From the NCBI GenBank assembly GCA_021324045.1, contig JAJPJV010000051.1:1-50314 (forward strand): a DNA stretch of 50,314 nt. Direction: 5' to 3'. The DNA comes from Actinomycetota bacterium (lineage in GTDB: Bacteria; Actinomycetota; Acidimicrobiia; Acidimicrobiales; RAAP-2). The first letter of the stretch is position 1. The number at the start of each line of letters is the position of its first letter. The position numbers and the translations under genes are program-made. Below are positions 34,898 to 45,800 of this stretch, piece after piece. The notes below the pieces were generated by a model that saw only the letters and a list, made by a program, of their open reading frames with translations, was not told the DNA's origin and did not search any database.

Positions 34898-34930
34898 GGT
34901 GGGGCCGGCAGGGATCGAACCTGCGACCAA
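34898..34930 (-). other. 3'-terminal tRNA fragment (possible attachment site)
   Basis: Read leftward, a T-arm (GCAGG, loop TTCGATC, CCTGC) is followed by CGGCCCC, the last part of an acceptor stem. The matching 5' half (GGGGCCG, D-arm, anticodon arm) is not found in the next 100 bases. An isolated 3' tRNA end is the standard mark left by tyrosine integrases. No integrase gene lies in the window. Confidence 0.65.
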
Positions 34931-35068
34931 GGGATGAGTCCTGACGAGGACAGCCGGGACCTGGGTAAAGGGCCGTCAGTGGGTGCAACGGGGGACTCAT
35001 AGCGCCGAACGGGGGCACCGCCGTGCGCTGGCGTCCGGTGCCGTGCGGTGGTGTCCGACGCCAGGATC

Positions 35069-35902: not shown

Positions 35903-36814
35903 ATGCCCGTGATGTTCTTGGACGAGAGCGAGCAGGGGCAGTTCCTGTGCGTGGGCGGCGTCTACGCTGCGGTGAGCGCAGTAGGGCGAGTCGAGGCGCG
36001 TTGGCGCGATCTCAAGCAGCGTCTCGGGTTGGGGCCGGGCGACTGTTTCAAGTGGTCGCCCGAAGAGCGGGTCACGAAGAAGCTCAAGAGCCTGGCCGAG
36101 GCACGGCTGGCGGCAGCCGAGTTGGTCGCCTCCCTTGAGGAAATGACGGCAGTCTCGGTTGTCTTGCAAGAACGCCGCGGCAACTACGTCGTTTCTGAGC
36201 CCGGTCGGAAGCGGGAGATCCTATCTTGGGACCAACTCTCCGGTAACCAGCGCGGCGGAGTGCGTCACTTCTACTTGCGTGGGCTTGAGTTCGCCGTCCA
36301 GCGGTTCGCTCGTGACTGCGATCCCCCAGAGGAGCATGCGGCAATTGTGGTCGACAATCTCGACTGGACGAGGAATCCCAAGAATCGGAAGACGCTCGTC
36401 CGTATGCTCAAACGGCTTCCTCAAGCGGACAAATGGGCCATCAAGGACTGGATTAAGAAAGGGACGGAAGCAGCTCGCGAAGCCTATGCTCGGTGGCTCC
36501 ATGAGGGTTTGGACTCGCCCGGGTACCAGACTCGTCCGCTCAAGGATCTCCTGTTCGAGTCTACGTTCCACGAAGCAGCCGGGCGGTGGTCCGACGCACT
36601 GCAGATCGCGGACTTCATCGCGGGGTGCAGCGCGGCGTTCTTTGCCGACCTGGACAAGGACAAAGTCGGGGGCGCGTCAGAACGCTACTTGCGGCTTCTG
36701 CTGCCAAGGCTTCGCAACAGACCAGGGGTTGGGTGTGGCGTCTGGGGCAACGGACTCGTGCTGTGGCCTCCAAATCATACACTCTGGGAAGTGGCAAAGA
36801 AAAGGTTGTCATGA
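35903..36814 (+). CDS. DUF3800 domain protein
   Basis: This 303-residue protein starts MPVMFLDESEQG, with the conserved Asp and Glu (D7, E8) of DUF3800, and has the second family motif SDALQIADFIAG with Asp/Gln/Asp near residue 230. DUF3800 proteins have an RNase H-like arrangement of acidic residues and often accompany mobile elements and defence genes, but no activity is established. Its codon use is less GC-extreme than the genes after it. GGTGAG precedes the ATG. Confidence 0.85.
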   Translation: MPVMFLDESEQGQFLCVGGVYAAVSAVGRVEARWRDLKQRLGLGPGDCFKWSPEERVTKKLKSLAEARLAAAELVASLEEMTAVSVVLQERRGNYVVSEPGRKREILSWDQLSGNQRGGVRHFYLRGLEFAVQRFARDCDPPEEHAAIVVDNLDWTRNPKNRKTLVRMLKRLPQADKWAIKDWIKKGTEAAREAYARWLHEGLDSPGYQTRPLKDLLFESTFHEAAGRWSDALQIADFIAGCSAAFFADLDKDKVGGASERYLRLLLPRLRNRPGVGCGVWGNGLVLWPPNHTLWEVAKKRLS

Positions 36815-37001: not shown

Positions 37002-37520
37002 TCACGAACGACCCAACGCCTCGCCCAGACCGGCCGCTGTCGGCGAGCGCGTGGGGCCTGCACCCCGCCCTCGCGCCGGCTTCGCGCGCCCCCGCACCAC
37101 CGCCTCGACCACGGCCGCGGCCGCGTCGGCGTCCTCGTGCTCCCAGACCCGCACGACGGCCCACCCCGCCTCGGCGAGGCGGCGGTCGGTGTCACGGTCG
37201 CGCTCCGCGTTGCGGACGAGCTTGGGGCCCCAGTACCAGGCGTTCGCTCTGGGCGCCGTCCCGTGCTCGGGGCAGGCGTGCCAGAAGCACCCGTCCACGA
37301 ACACCGCGACCCGCGGCCCCGAGAAGAGCAGGTCCGCCCGGCGGCGCACGCCAGGGACCGGGACCGCGGCGTCCACGCGGTAGCGAAGGCCCCGGCGCCA
37401 GAGCGCCTGGCGCAGGGCGAGCTCGGGCCCCGTGCCCGCGCGCCGCTGGGAGCGCATGCGCGACCGCGCGGCCTCCGAGCTCGGCGCTGGCCTCCTGCCC
37501 GGGCCGCCCGGGCCCCTCAC
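37002..37520 (-). CDS. vsr: Very-short-patch-repair endonuclease (Vsr family)
   Basis: This 172-residue protein carries the Vsr signature: MRSQRRAGTGPELALRQALW at residues 22-41, RRADLLFSG (metal-binding Asp), FVDGCFWHACPEH, and RVWEHE. Vsr nicks next to T:G mismatches that result when 5-methylcytosine deaminates, so it normally protects the targets of a cytosine methylase, such as the one at 41.3 kb. The GTG start overlaps the TGA of the HerA gene (GTGA), giving tight coupling. The C-terminal tail is low-complexity. Confidence 0.92.
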   Translation of the reverse strand: MRGPGGPGRRPAPSSEAARSRMRSQRRAGTGPELALRQALWRRGLRYRVDAAVPVPGVRRRADLLFSGPRVAVFVDGCFWHACPEHGTAPRANAWYWGPKLVRNAERDRDTDRRLAEAGWAVVRVWEHEDADAAAAVVEAVVRGRAKPARGRGAGPTRSPTAAGLGEALGRS

Positions 37521-39181
37521 GCTTCGGCGATCCGCCGCAGCGCCTCGTCGTTGCGCCGGACGTCGGCGCCGTGCCGACCGTCCCACTCCGCGGCCATCTG
37601 GAGGAAGTCCTCGCTCGACAGGTCGCTCGGCACGAGCTCCTTGTCGAACCGCACCTGGACCGCGAGGGGGAACCGCACCGCCGCGCCGCTGACGATCCCC
37701 TGGCCCGGCCCGAGCCCGGCCAGGGACCGGCGGTCCTCCTCCCCGAGGTTCTCCATCACGCGCTCGACGAACTGCTGGTCGCGCGGGTTGACGATGCGGA
37801 AGACCAGGAAGGTGTTGCACTGGGCGAGCGTCGTCTCGTCGAGGCGGCTCGGCCGCTGGCTCACGAGCAGCAGCCCAGTCCCGAACTTCCGCCCCTCGGT
37901 CGCGATCCGGCGGATCACCGCGAGCGACGGCGTCTCGGCCTGCCCCTCGCCTCGCGACGGCACGAGGTTGTGCGCCTCCTCGATCACCGTGAGGAAGGGC
38001 GGGATCCGGTCCTCCAGCTCGGTCCGGTGCTCGAAGAGCTCCCCGAGGAGGCTCGCGGCGATCGTCGACTGCGTGAGGTGCTCGTAGCCGCCGAGGTAGA
38101 CGATGCTCACCCGGCCGGGCCGGACGATCTCGTTCGGGGCCGTGCGCGGATCCGGCAGCGCCGCGAACCCGAGCCGCCCCATCCGCCTGCGGAGCCGTTC
38201 GTTCGCCGTCGCCATCGAGGCGAGCTGCCGGTCGACTCGGGACAGCTTCCGCCTCACGGCCGGGACCGTCCGGTGGTCGGTGGCAGCGGTGGTGGACACG
38301 TCCTCCAGGACCGCCCTCAGCGCCGCGATGAACTCCGACGCGTCCAGGGACCAGCGACTGTTCGCCTCGTCGCCAAGCTTCTGGATCACCTTGTCGAGCG
38401 CGATCTGGTACACGTGCTGCTGGGCCTCGCTCAGCCCGTCCGTCATCTCCTCGATCATCCACTCCAGCCGATCGGCGGTGTCGCGGTTGATCGTGACGCT
38501 CGGGTACCAGAGGCGGATCTCGGCGCCCAAGAAGCCCTCCTTCTCCTTGAGCCCGAGGTAGTCGCCGTGCGGGTCGAGGACCAGCACGGGGTAGCGCGCC
38601 TTCGCCAGCTCCCGAAGGATCCGCCGCACCGCGACGGTCTTGCCGCCTCCGGTCATCGCGAGCACGGCCATGTGGCGCGCGAGGATCGCGTTCGCCTTCC
38701 CCGTCACCGCGATCTCGCGCCTGCCGAGCAGCGTGCCGAGCTCGATGCGCGTCTCCTCCGGGTCCTCGCCAATCAGCACGCGCTCCACCGACTCCTGCGG
38801 GGGTCGCCGCACCGCTGCACCGGGCGGCACGGGGTACGCGAGGGGCTGGAGGAGCGTAGGCGCCGTCGCGTCGGTGAGCCCGAGCACGAGCGCCTCGGCG
38901 ACGACCTGGTCCCTCGTGACCGACAGGATCGTGTCGGAGATCCTGAGCTCCTCCTCGGCGAGCTCGAGCGCGGCCTCCCGCGGCATGAACGGGTTCTGCC
39001 GCGACAGGCTCACCACGCGTGCCCAGATCGTCCCCCCGGCCTGCGGCCCCTCCGCCTGCTCGGAGGGCGTCTCGACCGTGACGATGTCCCCCATGCGGGT
39101 CTCCCCGCGCTTGGCCTGGAACGAGAACGTCCGCGTCGAGGTGTCCCCGACCACGGTGCCGACAAGGATGTCGATCGCCAT
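37517..39181 (-). CDS. herA: HerA-like hexameric ATPase
   Basis: This 554-residue protein has an N-terminal HAS-barrel-like domain (VGTVVGDTSTRTFSF), Walker A MTGGGKT (176-182), VLDPHGDY, Walker B FLTVIEEAHN with E401 and E402, and the SQRPSRLDE and IVNPRDQQF segments of the HerA/FtsK group. HerA moves along DNA as a ring and powers the NurA nuclease. The NurA-like gene lies 18 bases upstream and Vsr overlaps downstream, so the three form one unit. The protein length matches the family. Confidence 0.93.
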   Translation of the reverse strand: MAIDILVGTVVGDTSTRTFSFQAKRGETRMGDIVTVETPSEQAEGPQAGGTIWARVVSLSRQNPFMPREAALELAEEELRISDTILSVTRDQVVAEALVLGLTDATAPTLLQPLAYPVPPGAAVRRPPQESVERVLIGEDPEETRIELGTLLGRREIAVTGKANAILARHMAVLAMTGGGKTVAVRRILRELAKARYPVLVLDPHGDYLGLKEKEGFLGAEIRLWYPSVTINRDTADRLEWMIEEMTDGLSEAQQHVYQIALDKVIQKLGDEANSRWSLDASEFIAALRAVLEDVSTTAATDHRTVPAVRRKLSRVDRQLASMATANERLRRRMGRLGFAALPDPRTAPNEIVRPGRVSIVYLGGYEHLTQSTIAASLLGELFEHRTELEDRIPPFLTVIEEAHNLVPSRGEGQAETPSLAVIRRIATEGRKFGTGLLLVSQRPSRLDETTLAQCNTFLVFRIVNPRDQQFVERVMENLGEEDRRSLAGLGPGQGIVSGAAVRFPLAVQVRFDKELVPSDLSSEDFLQMAAEWDGRHGADVRRNDEALRRIAEA

Positions 39182-39199
39182 CGCTCCCCTCCTTCCCTC

Positions 39200-41092
39200 C
39201 TACGCGGGGCGCCGGAAGAACGACCGCCCCAGGCGCGCGAACGCCTGCCGAGCCTGGCGGAACTCCTCCACCTTCCGCTCCCGGAGCAGGTGCGTGAGCA
39301 CGCGGTACGCGAGCAGGTCGCCCGCGGCGCCGGTGACCCAGCGCGGCACGCGCGCGTAGCGGTCGACGATCGAGAACCCCACCGGGAAGCCGTAGTTCGG
39401 CAGGAGCGCGGAGGAGTGGTAGAGGAGGACGGCGAGCTCGTCGAGACGGCCGGCGGCCGTGGCGTTGAACTCGACCCGGAACGGGGCAGAGCCCGCCCCG
39501 GGCTTGACGACGGTGACGTAGGGCTGCGGGTAGTGCCGGACCACGTCCTGCCACCGATCCCTGGCGTGGGTGGGGTCGGCCGTGAGCACCGGGAAGGCCG
39601 GGCTCAGGTACTCGCCGTCCTGGAGCAGGCAGCCGAAGAGCAGCGCGTCGTCGATCGCGAACGCCTTGGCCTTGTCGAGCATGCGCTGCGCCGTCCGCTC
39701 CTCGAGCGGGCCGTCGGGCTCGCTCGCCAGGCGCGCGAGCAGCCCCCTCGCGGCCACCAGGCTCGTCGAGTGCTCGACCACGCCGACGATGGGGACCGGC
39801 GAACCAAACGCCCGCCGGGCGATCGCGCCGTAGACGGCCACGAAGTGGTCCCAGAGCCGCCCGCCCTCCGGGTCCCCGTCGGGCCGCGGGCATAGGCCGA
39901 CGAGGGCGTCCTCGGGGCAGATGCCGTGCTCCTCGAGGAACCGGCGCTGGAGCCGGGGCAGGTAGTTCGGGCGCTCGTCATCGTACTGGTTGTACTTCGT
40001 CACGAGCGGTCCGTGCAGCAGCTGCACGTCGAGCCCCTCGCGCTCGGCCGTCTCGACGGCGCCGAGCAGCTCGACGAAGATCCGACAGGCCTGCACGAGC
40101 TGCGCCGGGTCCGGCGTCCGGTCCTCGCGCTCCTCCCCCAGGTCCGCGATCTCGCTCACGAGCCAGGCCTGCTGAAAGAACCGCTCCCGCGCGCCGTCCC
40201 CCTCCAGCCGCTCGTTGCCCGGCTGCGCCGCGTACGCGCCCGTGCGGATCACGGCCGAGACCGGGAACCGCTCGTCGTTCCCCACCATCCCGAGCCCGCC
40301 GTCGAGGAAGCCCACCCACCGTCCTTGCCAGGCGGCCCACGCCTCGAGATGGGAGCGCGCCACGCGCGCGATCCGCACCGGACTGCGCTCGTCCTCGAGG
40401 ACCGACCGGAGCTCCTGGGCGATAACGGTCGCGACGCTCGCGAAGCGCGCCACGACCTCCGGCGGCAGCTCGTAGACCCGTCGCAGCAGGAGGCCGACGA
40501 CCGAGGGCGAGGAGAGGAACGCTCTCGCCGGCAGCGCGAAGAGGTCAGGGTCCGATCTCCCATAGTGCTCCACGACGGCCTCGACCACCTCCTGGTGGCC
40601 GACGACGACGGCCCGCGCTCCGCCTCCCTCGTCGAGTACCTGCTCGAGGGCGCGCCGCTGCTCCACAGGTGCGACCTCGAGGAGGGTCGCGCTCGGGTCC
40701 TCGGAGGCGAAGTGGACGATGCAGCGCCACTCCCGGGAAGCTTCGTCCACGTCCTCGAGGACGACGACCGCCCACGCGTCCTCCCCCTCCTCGTCCAGGC
40801 GGTCGCGGAACATCGCAGCGAGCTGCTGGGAGTTGATCGAGGCCCGACGGACACCGTCGCTCCTCAGCCGCGCGTCGTCGACGATGCGCAACCGTCCGCG
40901 GCGCCCGCCGCGGACCTGCTCCCTGGCCGTCGCCACGAGCGACACGCCCTCGCGGAGCGAGACGAAATCGGAGAGGGAGCGCGCCACGCTCTCCCCGAGC
41001 GGCACGCGGTAGTCCCGAAGCTCGTCCCGCGCGTCGCCGAGACAGCGGAGCGGGAGGAGGATCACGAGCTTCGACGTCACCGGCGTCACCAT
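39200..41092 (-). CDS. NurA-like nuclease with long N-terminal extension
   Basis: This 630-residue protein has the NurA beginning motif GRWVGFLDGGLGMV at 257-270 (metal-binding Asp264), then SAVIRTGAY, and later IVGVVEHSTSL and FRVEFNAT, which match the NurA fold. NurA is a 5'-3' exonuclease that works with HerA. The first 250 residues are unlike NurA: a regular helix-strand pattern with VVLEDVDEASREW and VVVGHQEVVEAV. They may be a recognition or partner domain. A tRNA-like element lies just upstream. Confidence 0.8.
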   Translation of the reverse strand: MVTPVTSKLVILLPLRCLGDARDELRDYRVPLGESVARSLSDFVSLREGVSLVATAREQVRGGRRGRLRIVDDARLRSDGVRRASINSQQLAAMFRDRLDEEGEDAWAVVVLEDVDEASREWRCIVHFASEDPSATLLEVAPVEQRRALEQVLDEGGGARAVVVGHQEVVEAVVEHYGRSDPDLFALPARAFLSSPSVVGLLLRRVYELPPEVVARFASVATVIAQELRSVLEDERSPVRIARVARSHLEAWAAWQGRWVGFLDGGLGMVGNDERFPVSAVIRTGAYAAQPGNERLEGDGARERFFQQAWLVSEIADLGEEREDRTPDPAQLVQACRIFVELLGAVETAEREGLDVQLLHGPLVTKYNQYDDERPNYLPRLQRRFLEEHGICPEDALVGLCPRPDGDPEGGRLWDHFVAVYGAIARRAFGSPVPIVGVVEHSTSLVAARGLLARLASEPDGPLEERTAQRMLDKAKAFAIDDALLFGCLLQDGEYLSPAFPVLTADPTHARDRWQDVVRHYPQPYVTVVKPGAGSAPFRVEFNATAAGRLDELAVLLYHSSALLPNYGFPVGFSIVDRYARVPRWVTGAAGDLLAYRVLTHLLRERKVEEFRQARQAFARLGRSFFRRPA

Positions 41093-41215
41093 CGCGACCG
41101 AAGGCTATCCGTGGTCGAGGTGGCCGCGGGGGCCCATCCGCCGCCGATCACGCCGGCGGATGGCAACGTACGTCTCGCCCGGCGATCCGGTCGCACCCGA
41201 TCCTCGGTCCGCTGC

Positions 41216-41288
41216 ACGGCGGGAGGGCAACGGACCCCCCATCCCCCGGTTTCGGAGACCGGTGCTCTGCCAGTCGAGCTACCGCGGT
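41216..41288 (-). tRNA. tRNA-Arg(CCG)-like gene, probably degenerate
   Basis: The 73-base structure folds as a cloverleaf: acceptor ACCGCGG/CCGCCGT (one mismatch), D-arm GCTC/GAGC with GACTGGCA, anticodon stem CCGGT/ACCGG with loop CTCCGAA (anticodon CCG), variable GGGATG, T-stem GGGGG/CCCTC. The T-loop is TCCGTTG instead of TTCGANN, there is one extra variable-loop base, and no CCA follows. It lies between the m5C methylase and NurA-like genes. Confidence 0.6.
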
Positions 41289-41343
41289 CTGCGTGGCGCT
41301 GCACTGGTCGCCCGCACGGCAACCCAGCACCCACTGTCCGGGC

Positions 41344-42498
41344 TCAGGCCGCCGCGCCGTCGCCGGCCGTACCGAGATGCGCTTCCACGTCCTCCACGAA
41401 CCGCGCGTCGGCCCGCACCCGCCCCTCCCGCAGCCGCCCGAGGAAGCCGGCCGTGGCCCTCGGGGAGAGCGGGCGCAGCCCTGTGGGGTCGAGCAAGTCC
41501 GAGAGGTGGCGGTACGGCTCCCGCACCGGCCACGCGCTCGCTGCCACGGCGATGCGCCGTCCCGTGCCGTCCCCCCATGCCGCCGCGGGCCAGCCATGTC
41601 GCGGCCATCCCCACTCCGCGCAAACCGGCTCGCCCGGTGCGACGAGCCGCCGCCCCACCCACGCGGCGAGCGGCACGGGCACGGCGTTGCCGACGAGCCG
41701 CCAGCGGGTCGCGCCGCGCCGCGCGCTCCCCGCCGCCTCGGTCCACCCACGTGGGAAGCCCTGCAGCGCCTCGCCGTCCTCGAGGCCCGGCAGGACCAGG
41801 AGCCGGCCGGGAGCCTCGTGGGGCAGCCAGATCGCAGGCTGGCTCGGCGCCCCGACTCCGCTTCCGGCCTTGAGCGCCGGCACGCCGTCCTGCACCCACC
41901 CGATCCCACCGCGGCCCTCGGTCCAGTAGAAGCCGTAGGCGTCGGCTCTCAGCTCCTCGGCCCAGACCGGTCCCGCCTCGTCGGCGAAGAGCACGCCTCG
42001 CGGGTCGTGGCACGGCGAAGCCACGAGGATCACCCGCTCCCGGCGCTGCGGCAGGCCGAACGCCCTGGCGTCCACCACGCGATACGCAAAACGCCACCCG
42101 AGCGCTTCGAGTCCGTCCGCGACCACCCGCATGGCGCGCCCCCTGGCCAGGTGCACCATGTTGCGCACGTTCTCGAGCACCACCCACTCGACCGACTTGG
42201 GGGCCGACGCGAGCAACCGCAGCACCTCGCGGACCAGCCCCGACTGCGCCCCGTCGATGCCGGCCTTCCGCCCGGCCTGCGACAGGTCCGTACAGGGGAA
42301 GCCCGCCGTGACCACCTCGCACTCCGGGAGCGCCCGCATCGTCCGCACGTCCTCGTGCACCAGCACACCAGGGAAGCGCGCACCGAGCACGGCCTGCGCC
42401 GGCCCCCATGCCTCGCACGCCGCGACCGTCTCGATGCCCGACGTGCCGAAGCCGAGCTCGAACCCGCCGATGCCGGAGAAGAGGCTCGTGAGGCGCAT
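41344..42498 (-). CDS. DNA (cytosine-5) methyltransferase
   Basis: This 384-residue enzyme has the ordered m5C motifs: I LFSGIGGFELGF (6-17), IV TAGFPCTDLSQAGRKAG with catalytic Cys69, VI VVLENVRNM (Glu109), VIII QRRERVILVAS, and X RLVGNAVPVPLAAWVG. A specificity region lies between VIII and IX. It methylates cytosine at an unknown site and, with Vsr in the same cluster, fits a self-protection role. The gene begins 11 bases after the endonuclease stop. Confidence 0.93.
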   Translation of the reverse strand: MRLTSLFSGIGGFELGFGTSGIETVAACEAWGPAQAVLGARFPGVLVHEDVRTMRALPECEVVTAGFPCTDLSQAGRKAGIDGAQSGLVREVLRLLASAPKSVEWVVLENVRNMVHLARGRAMRVVADGLEALGWRFAYRVVDARAFGLPQRRERVILVASPCHDPRGVLFADEAGPVWAEELRADAYGFYWTEGRGGIGWVQDGVPALKAGSGVGAPSQPAIWLPHEAPGRLLVLPGLEDGEALQGFPRGWTEAAGSARRGATRWRLVGNAVPVPLAAWVGRRLVAPGEPVCAEWGWPRHGWPAAAWGDGTGRRIAVAASAWPVREPYRHLSDLLDPTGLRPLSPRATAGFLGRLREGRVRADARFVEDVEAHLGTAGDGAAA

Positions 42499-42509
42499 CG
42501 TCGCAAGCC

Positions 42510-43358
42510 TCAGTAGAACCGGACCCGGACGGCCTCGTGGTAGGACGGCGGGGTTCGTTCCAGCACGCACCGCACCATCCCGTCGACGAACCGGGCCGCT
42601 CGCGGTCGCGACCCGCCGGGGACGAGCCGCGCGACCGCCCTCGGGTACACGCGCACCGGCCGTCTCCGGCGCGCGACGAACCGGTCGATCGGCTCCACCA
42701 CGATCAGGCACGTGCGGTCGTACATCGTGCCGGAGTCCTGCATACGCACCATCGCGGCGGCCAGGCGCTCGAACGCCGTCCGAGGACAGTCGGCTCCGAG
42801 CAGGAGCAGGTACCCGAGCGCGGCGAGCGGGAAGCGCCCGCGAAGGTTGTGCGCGTCGCCGTAGGCCTCCTCCATCCGGTTGTTCGCGTTCTTGCCGTAC
42901 GCGCCGAGCATGCTCTTCGTGGACACGATGAGCTGCGGCCCGGTCTCCCAGCGCGACATGAGCACGTCCACTTCCTTCTCGTACGTCGCGCCGAGTACGC
43001 GGGCCTCGCTCAGGACGATCGAGGTGAACCGTCCGAGCGACATGCCCTTCCTCGCGAGCATGGGCATGAGCACGGCGAGCTCCCTCGGCAGGACTCGCGG
43101 ATCGCTGGCTCGCGGCCACACCTCGTCCGTCCCGAAGCCGCACCGCCGCAGCTCCTCGGCGAGCCACAGGTCGAGGGCGTGGCCGATCGCGACCGAGTCC
43201 CAGCCCCGGCCGGCCGTGGCGGGGAAGACGGCCGCCAGGAGCGAGGAGAGCAGGACCCAGTCCGGCCGGTGCGTCCGTACGCCGCCGACCTCCACGAAGC
43301 ACGGCGGTGGGGCGGAGTGGGCCGCCACGACCGGGTCGAGCTGGTCCCAGCTAGCCAC
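42510..43358 (-). CDS. Putative restriction endonuclease
   Basis: This 282-residue protein has no close family I can name. It has a likely PD-(D/E)xK-type core: YEKEVDVLM (D131) followed 17 residues later by IVSTKSM (K148), with Ser-Thr replacing the usual acidic residue before the Lys. This variant occurs in the Cfr10I/Bse634I type. It sits between an m5C methylase and an N6-adenine methylase, the position expected for their partner. The GTG start overlaps the last eight bases of the broken methylase gene. Confidence 0.65.
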   Translation of the reverse strand: MASWDQLDPVVAAHSAPPPCFVEVGGVRTHRPDWVLLSSLLAAVFPATAGRGWDSVAIGHALDLWLAEELRRCGFGTDEVWPRASDPRVLPRELAVLMPMLARKGMSLGRFTSIVLSEARVLGATYEKEVDVLMSRWETGPQLIVSTKSMLGAYGKNANNRMEEAYGDAHNLRGRFPLAALGYLLLLGADCPRTAFERLAAAMVRMQDSGTMYDRTCLIVVEPIDRFVARRRRPVRVYPRAVARLVPGGSRPRAARFVDGMVRCVLERTPPSYHEAVRVRFY

Positions 43359-44993
43359 GACGGCCGCCGCCCCGCTCCCCCTGCCCTCGGCGGCGCAGCA
43401 CCGCCTCGACGACCTCGCTCGCGAGCACGCGGTCCCGCTCGCGGAACGCCATCCGCAGCTGGCGCGTCTCCTCCAGCGACAGCGCGGAGGGCGGAGGGAC
43501 GGGGACGGTCCGTAAGTACTGAGCCTGGAAGCGCAGGGTCCCCCCGCGCATCCGCACGCCGTACGTCCCGACCCAGCGGCCCACCGCGTCGGAGAGGAGC
43601 CACCCGCCGAGGGCCTCCAGCCCCCATGCGTCGCTGGTGATCCACTAGAGGCCATGGTGGGGATACAGGCCGCCGGGGTCGAGGGTCGGCTCCAGTCTGG
43701 AGGCGAGCTCGGGTACGAGCAGCTTCGGCGTCCCGAGGAGCTTGGGCACGAGCCGGTCGATGGTCCGGTACCACTGCCCCGGACGCCGTCTCGCGGCGTG
43801 ACGGCCGCGCAGCTGCTCGCCGTGCGCCTCGAGGTACCTCCGCAGCCTCGGCCACGCCGCGAGGTCCGCGAGCCGGCCGTCGTCGTCCCAGGGGTTGACG
43901 AGCCAGCGACCGGACCAGCGAAGCTCCCCGTCCGCGAGGTCCTGCGTCGTCACGAGCGGGAGCAGCCGCTCGGGCTCGCAGGCCTCCGGGTCCGTGGTGA
44001 CGTAGACCGCGTCGGCCCCGGTCGCGACGCCGATCCCCACGCGCGTGCCCGTCGAGGGGTCCCCGAGTCGGGAGCACCCAGGAGCCGAACGGGGGGCGCG
44101 CTCGACGTCCTCGACCCGCCGTCGTCGGACCAACGCCGGTCCCGGCCGCTCGCGATCCAGCGAAGAAGCGACTGCATGCCGGGACGCTCGAACCGGGACG
44201 ACGCCGTGGCGAAGACCGTCGGTCCGATCCCGCGGTCCTTCGGTCGCGAGACGAGCACCACTGCCGGGTACGCCTGAACCTCGGACTCGAACGCGGCCGC
44301 GTCGCGCAGCTCGACCACGGCGTCGAGGCGGAACTCTGCTGCCACCATGGCCCGGAGACGCCGGCCGTACGCGTTGTGCATCCAGAGATCCGCGCAGATG
44401 ACGCACAGCCGGCCGCCCGGCACGAGCGCCCGCAGCCCGCGCTCCAGGAAGCCGACATAGAGATCGGCCCGCCCCCGCATCGTGGACCAGCGCGCCCGGT
44501 ACCGGGCGACGAGCGCTGGGTCGAGGTGCTCGAGGCGCACGTACGGAGGATTCCCGACGACGAGCGTCGCCGCGAGCTCATCGTCGGGAACGTCGAGGAG
44601 GAAGTCCGCACTGCGCACCCACCGGTGCGCGAGCCTGGCTGCGCGGTGACGCGAGATGCCACGGGCGACGAGCACCGATTCCGCAAGGTCGCTGGCCCTG
44701 GCGACGCAGGCCGGATCCAGGTCGACGGCAAGGATCTGGTCGTCTTCGAGCGTCCATCCGTGTCGGGACGCAGAATCCGCGAGGCGCTCGACGATCGCGC
44801 CGAGGAACGCGCCGTTCCCGCACGCCGGCTCGACGATCCGCTCCGCCGAGAGGTCCCGTTCCGGCCGGAGCCCGGCGAGGTCGAGCATCCCCTCGACCAA
44901 CCAGCGCCGCGTGAAGACCTGACCGTGCTCCGCAGCCTCGGCCTCGCGCACCGCCTCCCCCGCCTCGTCGCTAGAGCGACCCGTTGCACTCAC
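43351..44993 (-). pseudogene. Eco57I-type N6-adenine DNA methyltransferase, broken
   Basis: The N-terminal half is sound: VEPACGNGAFLGAI (AdoMet site), VVGNPPYVRLEHLD with NPPY at residues 148-151, and the TaqI-like C-terminal specificity pattern VGIGVATGADAVYV and QWYRTIDRLVPKLLGTPKLL. The frame changes between about 44060 and 44130, near a run of six Gs (44091-44096), and a TAG at 43645-43647 interrupts GLYPHHGL|WITSDAW. After the stop the frame continues to 43351. Two independent lesions argue against a working enzyme, unless they are assembly errors. GTG 44993 is preceded by GAGAGAAG. Confidence 0.85.
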
Positions 44994-45003
44994 AGAACTT
45001 CTC

Positions 45004-45800
45004 TCAATCCGCATAGATGCCCAGGAAGACCGGCGCCCGCCGTGAACGAGAGCGGCGAGACCGGCCCCGTCTGCACGAAAGGGTACCCGACCTCCAGCGC
45101 AGCCTCGGGGTCCGCGAAGCTGGCGGGGATCCGCGTGGCCGCGGGTCGCCGACCGCCTGCTCGAGCCGGCTCCTGGGTGCTCCTCGCCACCGGGCCGCAA
45201 CCCGTGGGCGTGGGCGGGCATCTGGCCCAAGACCGCAGGGCGCAGCGGCGCGAGGTCCTGCGCGACGAACATCCGCCCGAGCCCGTACTTCCGCGTCGTC
45301 CGGACGCGGTCCTCGAGGTCCTCGGCGAGCTCGCCCAGCTCGTCGTCCCGGTCGCGGAACGAGGAGGCGCAGCGGCGCGCCTCGTCGAAGACCAGCAGCA
45401 TGCCCACGCTCCCGCCCTGGAGGCGGCCCGGCTACACCTGCTGCCGCAGGGACAGGCAGGTCACGCGAACGATGTGCGCCTTGAGCTCCGGATCCCCCAG
45501 CGAGTCGCCCGCGTACCCGGTACCCGACGCGTCGGTCACCGTGTGGACGCGCCCGCGCTTCCCGTCGGGCCGCTCGAACGCGTCCATGAGCGCGGACGCA
45601 AGGGGGCTGCGCGGCCTGCCGTAGGGCTTCCGGCCGGCGAAGAGCGAGTGGATCGGCCGGAAGCCCTTCGGCGCCCGCTCCTGCTCGGCACGGCCCGCGA
45701 GGATCGGGGCGACGACCTCGTCGCGCCGGCCTCGCAGGCCGCGCGAGGCGCCGGACGTTCCGTCCCGGCGAGGCCGGTCGTGCCGCAGGCGGAAGACGCG
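45004..45800 (-). pseudogene. Relic of a HerA/AAA-like ATPase
   Basis: Minus-strand sequence here reads as a protein in pieces: ARVFRLRHDRPRR, EVVAPILAGRAEQERAPKGF, PIHSLFAGRKPYGRPRSP, RVHTVTDASGTGYAG, then a TAG at 45433-45435, then MLLVFDEARRCASS (Walker B-like) and ELAEDLEDRVRTTRKYGLG, and in another frame PEAALEVGYPFVQTGP and APVFLGIYAD. The Walker B-like segment and the GLGRMFVAQDLAPLR end resemble HerA-type ATPases. The stop codon and frame changes show decay. It ends just before the methylase start. Confidence 0.6.

What the first reader, a model, noticed from the sequence alone, without database searches (positions are those of the whole stretch)
37002..45006. HerA-NurA motor-nuclease built into a restriction-modification cluster
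One leftward run contains an N6-adenine methylase, a putative endonuclease, an m5C methylase, a NurA-like nuclease with an unknown 250-residue N-terminal domain, HerA, and Vsr, with HerA/Vsr overlapping and most gaps under 20 bp. Known ATP-dependent types such as the NgoAVII/CglI group combine m5C methylase and Vsr with a Z1 helicase; here HerA-NurA takes the motor role. I do not recognise this exact combination, so it may be a variant defence system in which HerA-NurA degrades DNA cut or left unmethylated.
Basis: partly seen in the sequence, partly recalled or inferred. Interest (0 to 1): 0.78.

Follow-up and report, generated by a model that had tools for sequence, protein, structure and literature searches.

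The report
HerA-NurA motor nuclease beside cytosine methylase
A DNA-pumping motor and a nuclease best known from DNA repair sit here beside a DNA cytosine methylase, and related gene pairs elsewhere often sit beside DNA-marking enzymes, which suggests a bacterial defence that destroys DNA lacking the cell's own mark.

Summary
The adenine methylase is broken by a frame change and an in-frame stop, and a tRNA-Arg gene fills much of a 251-bp gap between the m5C methylase and nurA. HerA is clear; the NurA fold is predicted (Z 19.1 to Sulfolobus NurA).
The nurA gene is in 1 of 100 genomes of the family, the window's own. Of 54 related loci, 19 lie by DpdA/DpdC-like 7-deazaguanine genes, 5 by m5C methylases, 4 by adenine or type I/III R-M genes; 21 Pelagibacteraceae-type loci and 5 others show none. 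The window falls on the m5C side of the trees. Three viral-collection loci found through the NurA profile all carry an m5C methylase. The endonuclease family pairs with adenine methylases elsewhere and looks like a neighbour.
Best reading: an m5C-protected HerA-NurA restriction system with Vsr as repair helper, a new variant near TdpAB. The tRNA gap and the methylase-free Pelagibacteraceae loci speak against it. Nothing was tested at the bench.

The parts
37002..37520 (-). Vsr-type mismatch endonuclease, 4-bp overlap with herA
   Evidence: TIGR00632 120 bits; PF03852 5.8e-15; 53% identical over 151 aa to the Vsr beside an m5C methylase in Nocardia farcinica
37517..39181 (-). HerA-family DNA-pumping ATPase (554 aa)
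   Evidence: PF01935 9.1e-26; GGGKT at 178 and IEEAHN at 400; 49% identical to HerA of L124 and L125; the only match of this protein in its genome
39200..41092 (-). NurA-like nuclease (630 aa) with an N-terminal extension of roughly 200 aa
   Evidence: AF2 model matches 2ygk_A Z 19.1, 9x1m_G Z 16.8, 8wfd_G of the TdpAB complex Z 15.2; 28 of 31 family members match PF09376 at E up to 1
41214..41288 (-). tRNA-Arg (CCG) gene between the methylase and nurA
   Evidence: ARAGORN; Rfam RF00005 39.1 bits against 29
41344..42498 (-). m5C DNA methylase (384 aa)
   Evidence: PF00145 6e-43; PADLOC PDLC03324 1.4e-113 over 376 residues
42510..43358 (-). type II restriction endonuclease-like protein, probably a neighbour and not part of the system
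   Evidence: PF04555 XhoI 0.0033, under its cut-off; homologs in 13 of 295 other phylum genomes; conserved core
43351..45014 (-). remnant of an N6-adenine methylase (start codon uncertain), broken by a frame change and an in-frame stop
   Evidence: two-frame tblastn matches to three homologs; PADLOC PDLC03313 matches both pieces

Best explanation
The core is m5C methylase + NurA-like + HerA, with Vsr as helper: a restriction-modification system in which the methylase marks the cell's own DNA and the HerA hexamer, with a NurA dimer, is the restriction engine. HerA would load on incoming DNA and pump it with ATP into NurA, which cuts both strands processively. Methylation of target sites on host DNA would stop recognition or progress. 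Vsr would repair the T:G mismatches that deamination makes at methylated sites. The N-terminal extension of NurA, clear in four other m5C-type relatives and only weakly alike in the window, may read the site or the mark. Shown by sequence: gene order, HerA, Vsr and methylase families, the repeated m5C partner. Shown by prediction: the NurA fold. Inferred: complex formation, protection by m5C, antiviral role, site reading. The adjacent adenine methylase remnant and endonuclease are read as a separate, decayed type II system.
For: Repeated partner: of 54 loci found by NurA sequence, 5 have an m5C methylase in the fetched flanks, 3 of these with Vsr and AIPR; all 3 viral-collection loci do. With the window that is 9 loci, HerA whole in 7 of 9 (cut short in L012, contig end in L126), holding four m5C lineages whose best segments are 24-30% identical between lineages, so the pairing is not one inherited block. 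L011 is a compact m5C-NurA-HerA run with a TGATG overlap and no homolog of the window's endonuclease. The m5C and Pelagibacteraceae-type rows form one side of a branch with 100/100 support and the window lies there (NurA tree). HerA-NurA of Thermococcus cuts both strands of dsDNA with ATP (passages of PMC12977600). The family is sporadic: 1 of 100 genomes of the family, 3 of 396 of the phylum, 1 of 385 in the class of L014, each count including the genome at the centre. A chain of the TdpAB complex, by its chain letter taken as TdpB, resembles this NurA (Z 15.2).
Against: In the window the methylase is 251 bp from nurA with a tRNA between, and only 11 bp from the endonuclease, so it may belong with the latter. 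In Mycolicibacterium arabiense a homolog of the same m5C lineage, with a Vsr match in the same reading frame, lies next to an adenine methylase of the window's type. Close relatives of the window's m5C occur without HerA or NurA homologs in all 7 plasmid records fetched, 5 of them with a Vsr match. The 21 Pelagibacteraceae-type loci of the same tree branch show no modification marker. The window NurA sits on a very long branch (5.15) and its join with L011 and L012 is weak (91/35). The N-terminal domain could not be modelled (pLDDT 42.9). No activity was measured.
Confidence: 0.55

Rival explanations
1. Defence-island neighbours: the m5C-Vsr pair, the adenine methylase-endonuclease pair and HerA-NurA are three separate systems that lie side by side at a tRNA, with no shared mechanism.
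For: Relatives of the first two pairs stand without HerA-NurA elsewhere; a tRNA gene lies between methylase and nurA; one adenine methylase is broken; a possible tRNA 3' fragment near 34.9 kb could be an integration scar.
Against: m5C recurs beside NurA in 8 other loci with several unlike m5C lineages, in L011 as an overlapping run; the m5C and Vsr genes here flank HerA-NurA.
Confidence: 0.25
2. Clean-up after cleavage: the type II endonuclease cuts unmodified DNA and HerA-NurA degrades the ends, RecBCD-like.
For: Open endonuclease gene 11 bp from the methylase with its conserved core kept; end-dependent degradation is the described activity of HerA-NurA (PMC12977600 passages).
Against: No homolog of this endonuclease was found in the fetched stretches of the 54 genome loci or 3 viral loci; its methylase partner is broken.
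Confidence: 0.1
3. DNA repair: HerA-NurA is the ordinary end-resection pair and its neighbours are incidental.
For: HerA and the NurA fold are those of the repair pair; HerA is nearer to Thermococcus HerA than to TdpA; 21 Pelagibacteraceae-type loci lack modification markers.
Against: Only 1 of 100 family genomes holds the nurA gene; of 6 genomes from other phyla that hold the variant, 4 also hold a separate stronger NurA match; the HerA repair equivalog cut-offs are missed by far (180.7 of 970 and 121.6 of 800 bits; the two antiphage HerA equivalogs are missed as well); 28 of 54 loci lie by DNA-modification or R-M genes.
Confidence: 0.1

Closest known systems
TdpABC, phosphorothioate-linked defence (An et al. 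2025, doi 10.1038/s41589-024-01832-w; not read: title seen in reference lists; PDB names; mechanism recalled)
   Same: A HerA-like ATPase (TdpA) with a NurA-fold partner chain (Z 15.2), as recalled governed by a DNA modification.
   Different: The mark here would be m5C, not phosphorothioate. HerA here is far closer to Thermococcus HerA (5.8e-41) than to TdpA (2.3e-6). NurA here has exchanged conserved residues; TdpB was not compared at those positions.
MORC/MutL-helicase R-M operons (PMC2292703, passages) and the Mza system (PADLOC MzaE; what else Mza holds is recalled)
   Same: m5C methylase, Vsr and AIPR in one neighbourhood with an ATP-driven engine; AIPR of L014 matches MzaE at 4.6e-79.
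   Different: HerA-NurA stands where those operons have a GHKL ATPase, an SF2 helicase and an endonuclease. No AIPR was found in the window (tblastn with one AIPR).
NgoAVII/CglI ATP-dependent R-M (PMC4267653, passages)
   Same: m5C methylase plus an ATPase-coupled nuclease.
   Different: DEAD-Z1 helicase and PLD-B3 nuclease there, HerA and NurA here.
HerA-Sir2 (Nezha) and HerA-DUF4297 (table passage of PMC12948488)
   Same: HerA with a defence effector.
   Different: Other effectors; no DNA-modification partner in that table.
Dpd 7-deazaguanine island (PMC11888242, passages) and the BREX-related capture system with HerA and TGT (PMC12839542, passages)
   Same: 19 of the 54 relatives carry DpdC-like DUF6884 and/or DpdA-like TGT genes by NurA-HerA.
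   Different: The restriction genes named there are dpdD-K, or PglZ and others with HerA; NurA does not occur in the held text of PMC12839542.
Ordinary HerA-NurA end resection pair (PMC9960219 and PMC12977600, passages)
   Same: Same two folds, adjacent genes.
   Different: Sporadic, often next to modification genes, and D/H positions exchanged in NurA.

Membership tests
NurA | NurA RNase H-like fold | tested here: met
   Rows 1 to 11 of the predicted model's matches are NurA or NurA-like chains: 2ygk_A Z 19.1 over 287 residues, rmsd 4.4
NurA | Pfam PF09376 match | tested here: inconclusive
   Window protein: no match; 28 of 31 aligned family members match at E up to 1, best 1.7e-10
NurA | First two acidic residues (DGS Asp and helix Glu; roles recalled) | tested here: met
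   D264 51 of 51, E341 51 of 51; D264 aligns to the ordinary proteins' DGS motif
NurA | Asp of DG.L and His of the C-terminal AH motif (roles recalled) | tested here: not met
   H360 in 50 of 51 and D577 in 51 of 51 at these places; in the 4 ordinary proteins aligned, Asp in 4 of 4 and His in 3 of 4 (read by eye)
HerA | DUF87 ATPase with Walker A and B | tested here: met
   relaxed Walker A in 48 of 48 family rows
HerA DNA-repair equivalog | NCBIfam NF040819 cut-off | tested here: not met
   180.7 bits against 970
TdpABC | NurA-fold TdpB plus HerA-type TdpA | tested here: inconclusive
   Fold yes (Z 15.2); sequence of HerA only 2.3e-6 to TdpA
TdpABC | Phosphorothioation enzyme TdpC | not tested
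   not searched for in the genome
NgoAVII/CglI | DEAD-Z1 helicase and PLD nuclease | tested here: not met
   No such Pfam match in the ten proteins scanned between 33.0 and 45.4 kb; the rest of the window was not scanned
MORC/Mza-type operon | GHKL ATPase, helicase and AIPR | tested here: not met
   No AIPR in the window by tblastn with one query; no GHKL or SF2 helicase Pfam match in the ten proteins scanned
Type II R-M (adenine methylase + endonuclease) | Intact protective methylase | tested here: not met
   Frame change and in-frame stop; an assembly fault is not excluded
m5C-protected restriction system | Restriction blocked by m5C | not testable with these tools
   needs enzymes, phage and methylome

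The most novel reading that the evidence does not exclude
One HerA-NurA motor-nuclease family serves as a shared restriction engine that has been wired to several DNA-marking chemistries: 7-deazaguanine (DpdA/DpdC-like), adenine methylation (type I/III-like) and cytosine methylation (with Vsr and AIPR). Its branches largely follow the chemistry, and its nuclease has exchanged an Asp and a His at two conserved positions. The window is a cytosine-methylation member.
Probability: 0.45. Interest if true: 0.85.

Novelty: new variant of a known kind. Interest (0 to 1): 0.7.

Why it matters
If true, one DNA-pumping nuclease can be guided by unrelated self-marks, which would show how restriction engines read modification in general: by blocking translocation, by blocking loading, or through a reader domain. 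It would also give HerA-NurA a defence role in bacteria that can be compared across chemistries, and explain a compact m5C-NurA-HerA set found also on contigs of a viral collection.

Tried and rejected
Rejected or led nowhere: adenine methylase and endonuclease as parts of the system. Constant repair locus in the family. Pfam NurA as a census tool in the family: it misses the window's own protein, so its one weak hit in 41 genomes was not used. Sequence search of the NurA profile and of one member in the PDB: no NurA hit, only chance matches; the fold search was used instead. The first viral scan with the 3-row alignment found nothing; the scan with 31 rows found 3 loci, which were not put into the trees. 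No relative by tblastn in plasmids for three NurA queries or in phages for the window's. Fold of the N-terminal extension: model too poor to search. Integration at the tRNA-Arg: only short chance-like matches to its 3' part in the window. A further census in the class of L014: 1 of 385, the centre itself (in only 4 candidates a genome were scored where there were more). Rows dropped: a DUF6884 hit in L059 (4e-5, 25%, opposite strand); loci without a full-length ORF in the trees (50 of 54 loci in the NurA tree, 47 of 54 in the HerA tree, plus the window); one of five ordinary NurA loci for which the script found no frame (L097). The HerA tree is the quick one; the careful search did not finish. 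L060 was labelled 'none' in the trees, because its type III genes were recognised later. L006 and L007 are the same places as L053 and L054 and were not counted twice. L015 and L025, counted with the Pelagibacteraceae-type loci, are titled Proteobacteria. The Fisher value 4.2e-6 (5 of 5 against 0 of 28 loci) ignores kinship and is only a guide. Of 7 plasmid records with relatives of the window's m5C, 2 (L089, L090) gave no Vsr match.

Literature: searches gave no listed paper whose title or abstract start describes HerA-NurA with m5C/Vsr or with DpdA/DpdC; of the papers, only listings and passages were seen, in an open-licence library. One search (DUF6884, DpdA, HerA) held 2 papers, (HerA, NurA, Pelagibacter) none.
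Full report
What is there. On the minus strand between 45.0 and 37.0 kb lie, in reading order, an adenine methylase remnant, an endonuclease-like gene, an m5C methylase, a tRNA-Arg gene, a NurA-like gene, herA and vsr. Gaps from the coordinates: methylase remnant and endonuclease overlap by 8 bp, endonuclease to m5C 11 bp, m5C to nurA 251 bp with the tRNA inside, nurA to herA 18 bp, herA and vsr overlap by 4 bp. The genome belongs to the Actinomycetota: two genomes of its phylum (G185, G098) are the records of L053 and L054, which bear that name; its own name is not told.

The adenine methylase is broken. Homologs from three other loci (L068, L076, L084) match it in two different frames, and the second part runs through an in-frame stop (three-frame view). 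Whether this is decay or an assembly fault cannot be told; two separate lesions favour decay. The endonuclease frame is open and keeps the residues conserved among homologs. Its family pairs with adenine methylases elsewhere: in G097 (L068) with a methylase of the window's type in an adjoining frame, and on plasmids of Cnuibacter, Gordonia and Rhizobium with more distant ones (25-28%), without m5C, NurA or HerA homologs in those 16.7-kb stretches.

The NurA-like protein. The window protein matches no model of Pfam, PADLOC or NCBIfam at the limits used. In an alignment of 31 sequences (window plus 30 of the 54 loci), 28 of 31 members match PF09376 at E up to 1, best 1.7e-10. An AlphaFold2 model made with that alignment (mean pLDDT 70.1; 26 of 43 ten-residue blocks from residue 201 on are at 80 or more; the N-terminal part is poor) finds NurA structures on top: Sulfolobus NurA Z 19.1, Pyrococcus 16.9, Thermococcus HerA-NurA 16.8, TdpAB 15.2, Deinococcus 13.6; Argonautes, which share an RNase H-like core, follow from 11.4 down. 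Profile comparison with four ordinary NurA proteins gives 98.6% probability and E 1.1e-14. In that alignment the ordinary DG.L motif is HGPL here and the ordinary AH motif is VD here: His in 50 of 51 rows and Asp in 51 of 51, while the first Asp and the Glu stay (51 of 51 each). That these are the metal-binding positions is recalled, not tested.

How common and where. In the window's family 1 of 100 genomes has the gene, the window's own. In a draw of 396 phylum genomes 3 have it, the window's included, and in 385 of the class of L014 one, the centre itself. A scan of the genome collection gave 54 loci in Chloroflexota, Cyanobacteriota, Acidobacteriota, Poribacteria, Actinomycetota, Alphaproteobacteria and others. 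HerA of the same family follows: the gap is within 50 bp in 43 of the 47 loci where both were called. In 4 of 6 genomes tested a separate, stronger NurA match is also present, so the variant does not simply replace the ordinary protein.

What it sits next to. By marker tblastn and Pfam: 19 of 54 loci have a DUF6884 (DpdC-like) and/or TGT (DpdA-like) gene, 14 of 54 both. The TGT gene starts within 10 bp of the end of herA in 13 of 15 loci where both were called, and DUF6884 adjoins or overlaps nurA in 15 of 16 (first possible starts). PADLOC calls the TGT DpdA only weakly (2.6e-8 and 1.2e-4, two proteins). Five of 54 have an m5C methylase; three of those also Vsr and AIPR. Four of 54 lie by type I, type III or adenine methylase genes (L053, L056, L059, L060). 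Twenty-one Pelagibacteraceae-type loci and five others (L055, L057, L058, L062, L064) have none of the markers; L058 has a PLD-SNF2 helicase gene. In the Pelagibacteraceae-type group 17 of 21 share flanking gene clusters on each side, and 15 of 21 carry one of two ATPase families upstream. So 28 of 54, or 28 of 33 outside that group, lie by modification or R-M genes. No random-locus control was run.

A further check. Three loci of the viral collection, found through the NurA profile, all carry an m5C methylase: L124 NurA-HerA-AIPR-m5C; L125 integrase, m5C, an AspBHI-Mrr-like gene, Vsr, NurA-HerA, AIPR; L126 m5C-NurA at a contig end. None has a homolog of the window's endonuclease or adenine methylase in the fetched stretch. 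The hits were confirmed against the window's own protein, so relatives on its side were expected; the m5C gene was not part of the query. HerA of L124 and L125 is 49% identical to the window's, the highest among those compared. Counting the window, nine loci pair NurA with m5C methylases of four lineages whose best segments share 24-30% identity between lineages; HerA is whole in 7 of 9 (cut short in L012, beyond the contig end in L126); Vsr is in 5 of 9 and AIPR in 5 of 9.

Trees. In the NurA tree (51 rows) and the quick HerA tree (48 rows) the rows with m5C plus the Pelagibacteraceae-type rows lie on one side and the deazaguanine and adenine/type I-III rows on the other (100/100 and 100). 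All five labels need 6 changes in the NurA tree against a shuffled mean of 25.1, 8 against 24.3 in the HerA tree; near copies add to such clustering. The window's NurA branch is very long, so only its side of the tree is firm, not its sister.

Mechanism. Thermococcus HerA-NurA needs ATP to cut dsDNA and degrades both strands (passages of PMC12977600); Deinococcus NurA-HerA resects ends (PMC9960219, passages). The best reading is that this variant does the former to incoming DNA and is held off host DNA by the mark. In TdpAB, the nearest solved relative in concept, a phosphorothioation pathway modulates a HerA-NurA-like machine (title; details recalled). Vsr most likely serves the methylase: homologs of both lie together in Nocardia farcinica (50% and 53% identical), Sinorhizobium, Rhizobium and, on opposite strands, Burkholderia.

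What speaks against. The tRNA gap and the close endonuclease leave open that the window's m5C belongs to the type II pair; in Mycolicibacterium arabiense an m5C gene with a Vsr match lies by an adenine methylase of the window's type. Relatives of the window's m5C had no HerA or NurA homolog nearby in any of 7 plasmid records. The Pelagibacteraceae-type loci lack the markers. Neighbourhood is not function, and no activity was measured.

Known or new. Papers seen in passages describe MORC/MutL operons with m5C, Vsr and AIPR, NgoAVII/CglI, HerA capture systems and HerA with TGT in BREX-related loci. The listings showed no paper on HerA-NurA joined to m5C/Vsr or to DpdA/DpdC. I rate it a new variant of a known kind.

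Noticed in passing
window 34898-34960, minus strand: By eye, a fragment like the 3' end of a tRNA-Met; Rfam reported no match there. Its 24-base end recurs with 2 mismatches in contig C50, which was not examined. Possibly an attachment-site scar.
   Followed up: partly
window 45000-45407, minus strand: A short frame that reads like the end of a HerA/TraG-type ATPase (Pfam E 0.06, not significant); possibly a second decayed ATPase.
   Followed up: no
window 35903-36814, plus strand: DUF3800 gene convergent with vsr (PF12686 1.1e-4).
   Followed up: no
window 41214-41288: The tRNA-Arg(CCG) has an unusual T arm. A pattern search for its anticodon arm (up to 2 mismatches) found only this gene and a tRNA-Trp in the genome.
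   Followed up: partly
L016-L025, L027-L030, L032-L034, L041, L042, L048: Pelagibacteraceae carry this pair at a shared chromosomal place with a variable upstream set, often led by AAA/SMC-like ATPases (PADLOC NsnB and PDC-M55A matches for the two examined); it looks like a hypervariable locus.
   Followed up: partly
L035-L040, L043-L047, L051, L054, L061, L063: A compact DpdC-like, NurA, HerA, DpdA-like run in several phyla, with a queuosine-precursor-type transporter gene (Vut_1) in 5 loci; it may be a small 7-deazaguanine restriction system.
   Followed up: partly
L012 6447-6923: HerA is cut short in Paramagnetospirillum caucaseum next to whole m5C and NurA frames and near an integrase-like gene.
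   Followed up: no
L084 7857-9521: m5C methylase frame that also holds a Vsr match in Mycolicibacterium arabiense, overlapping an adenine methylase gene.
   Followed up: no
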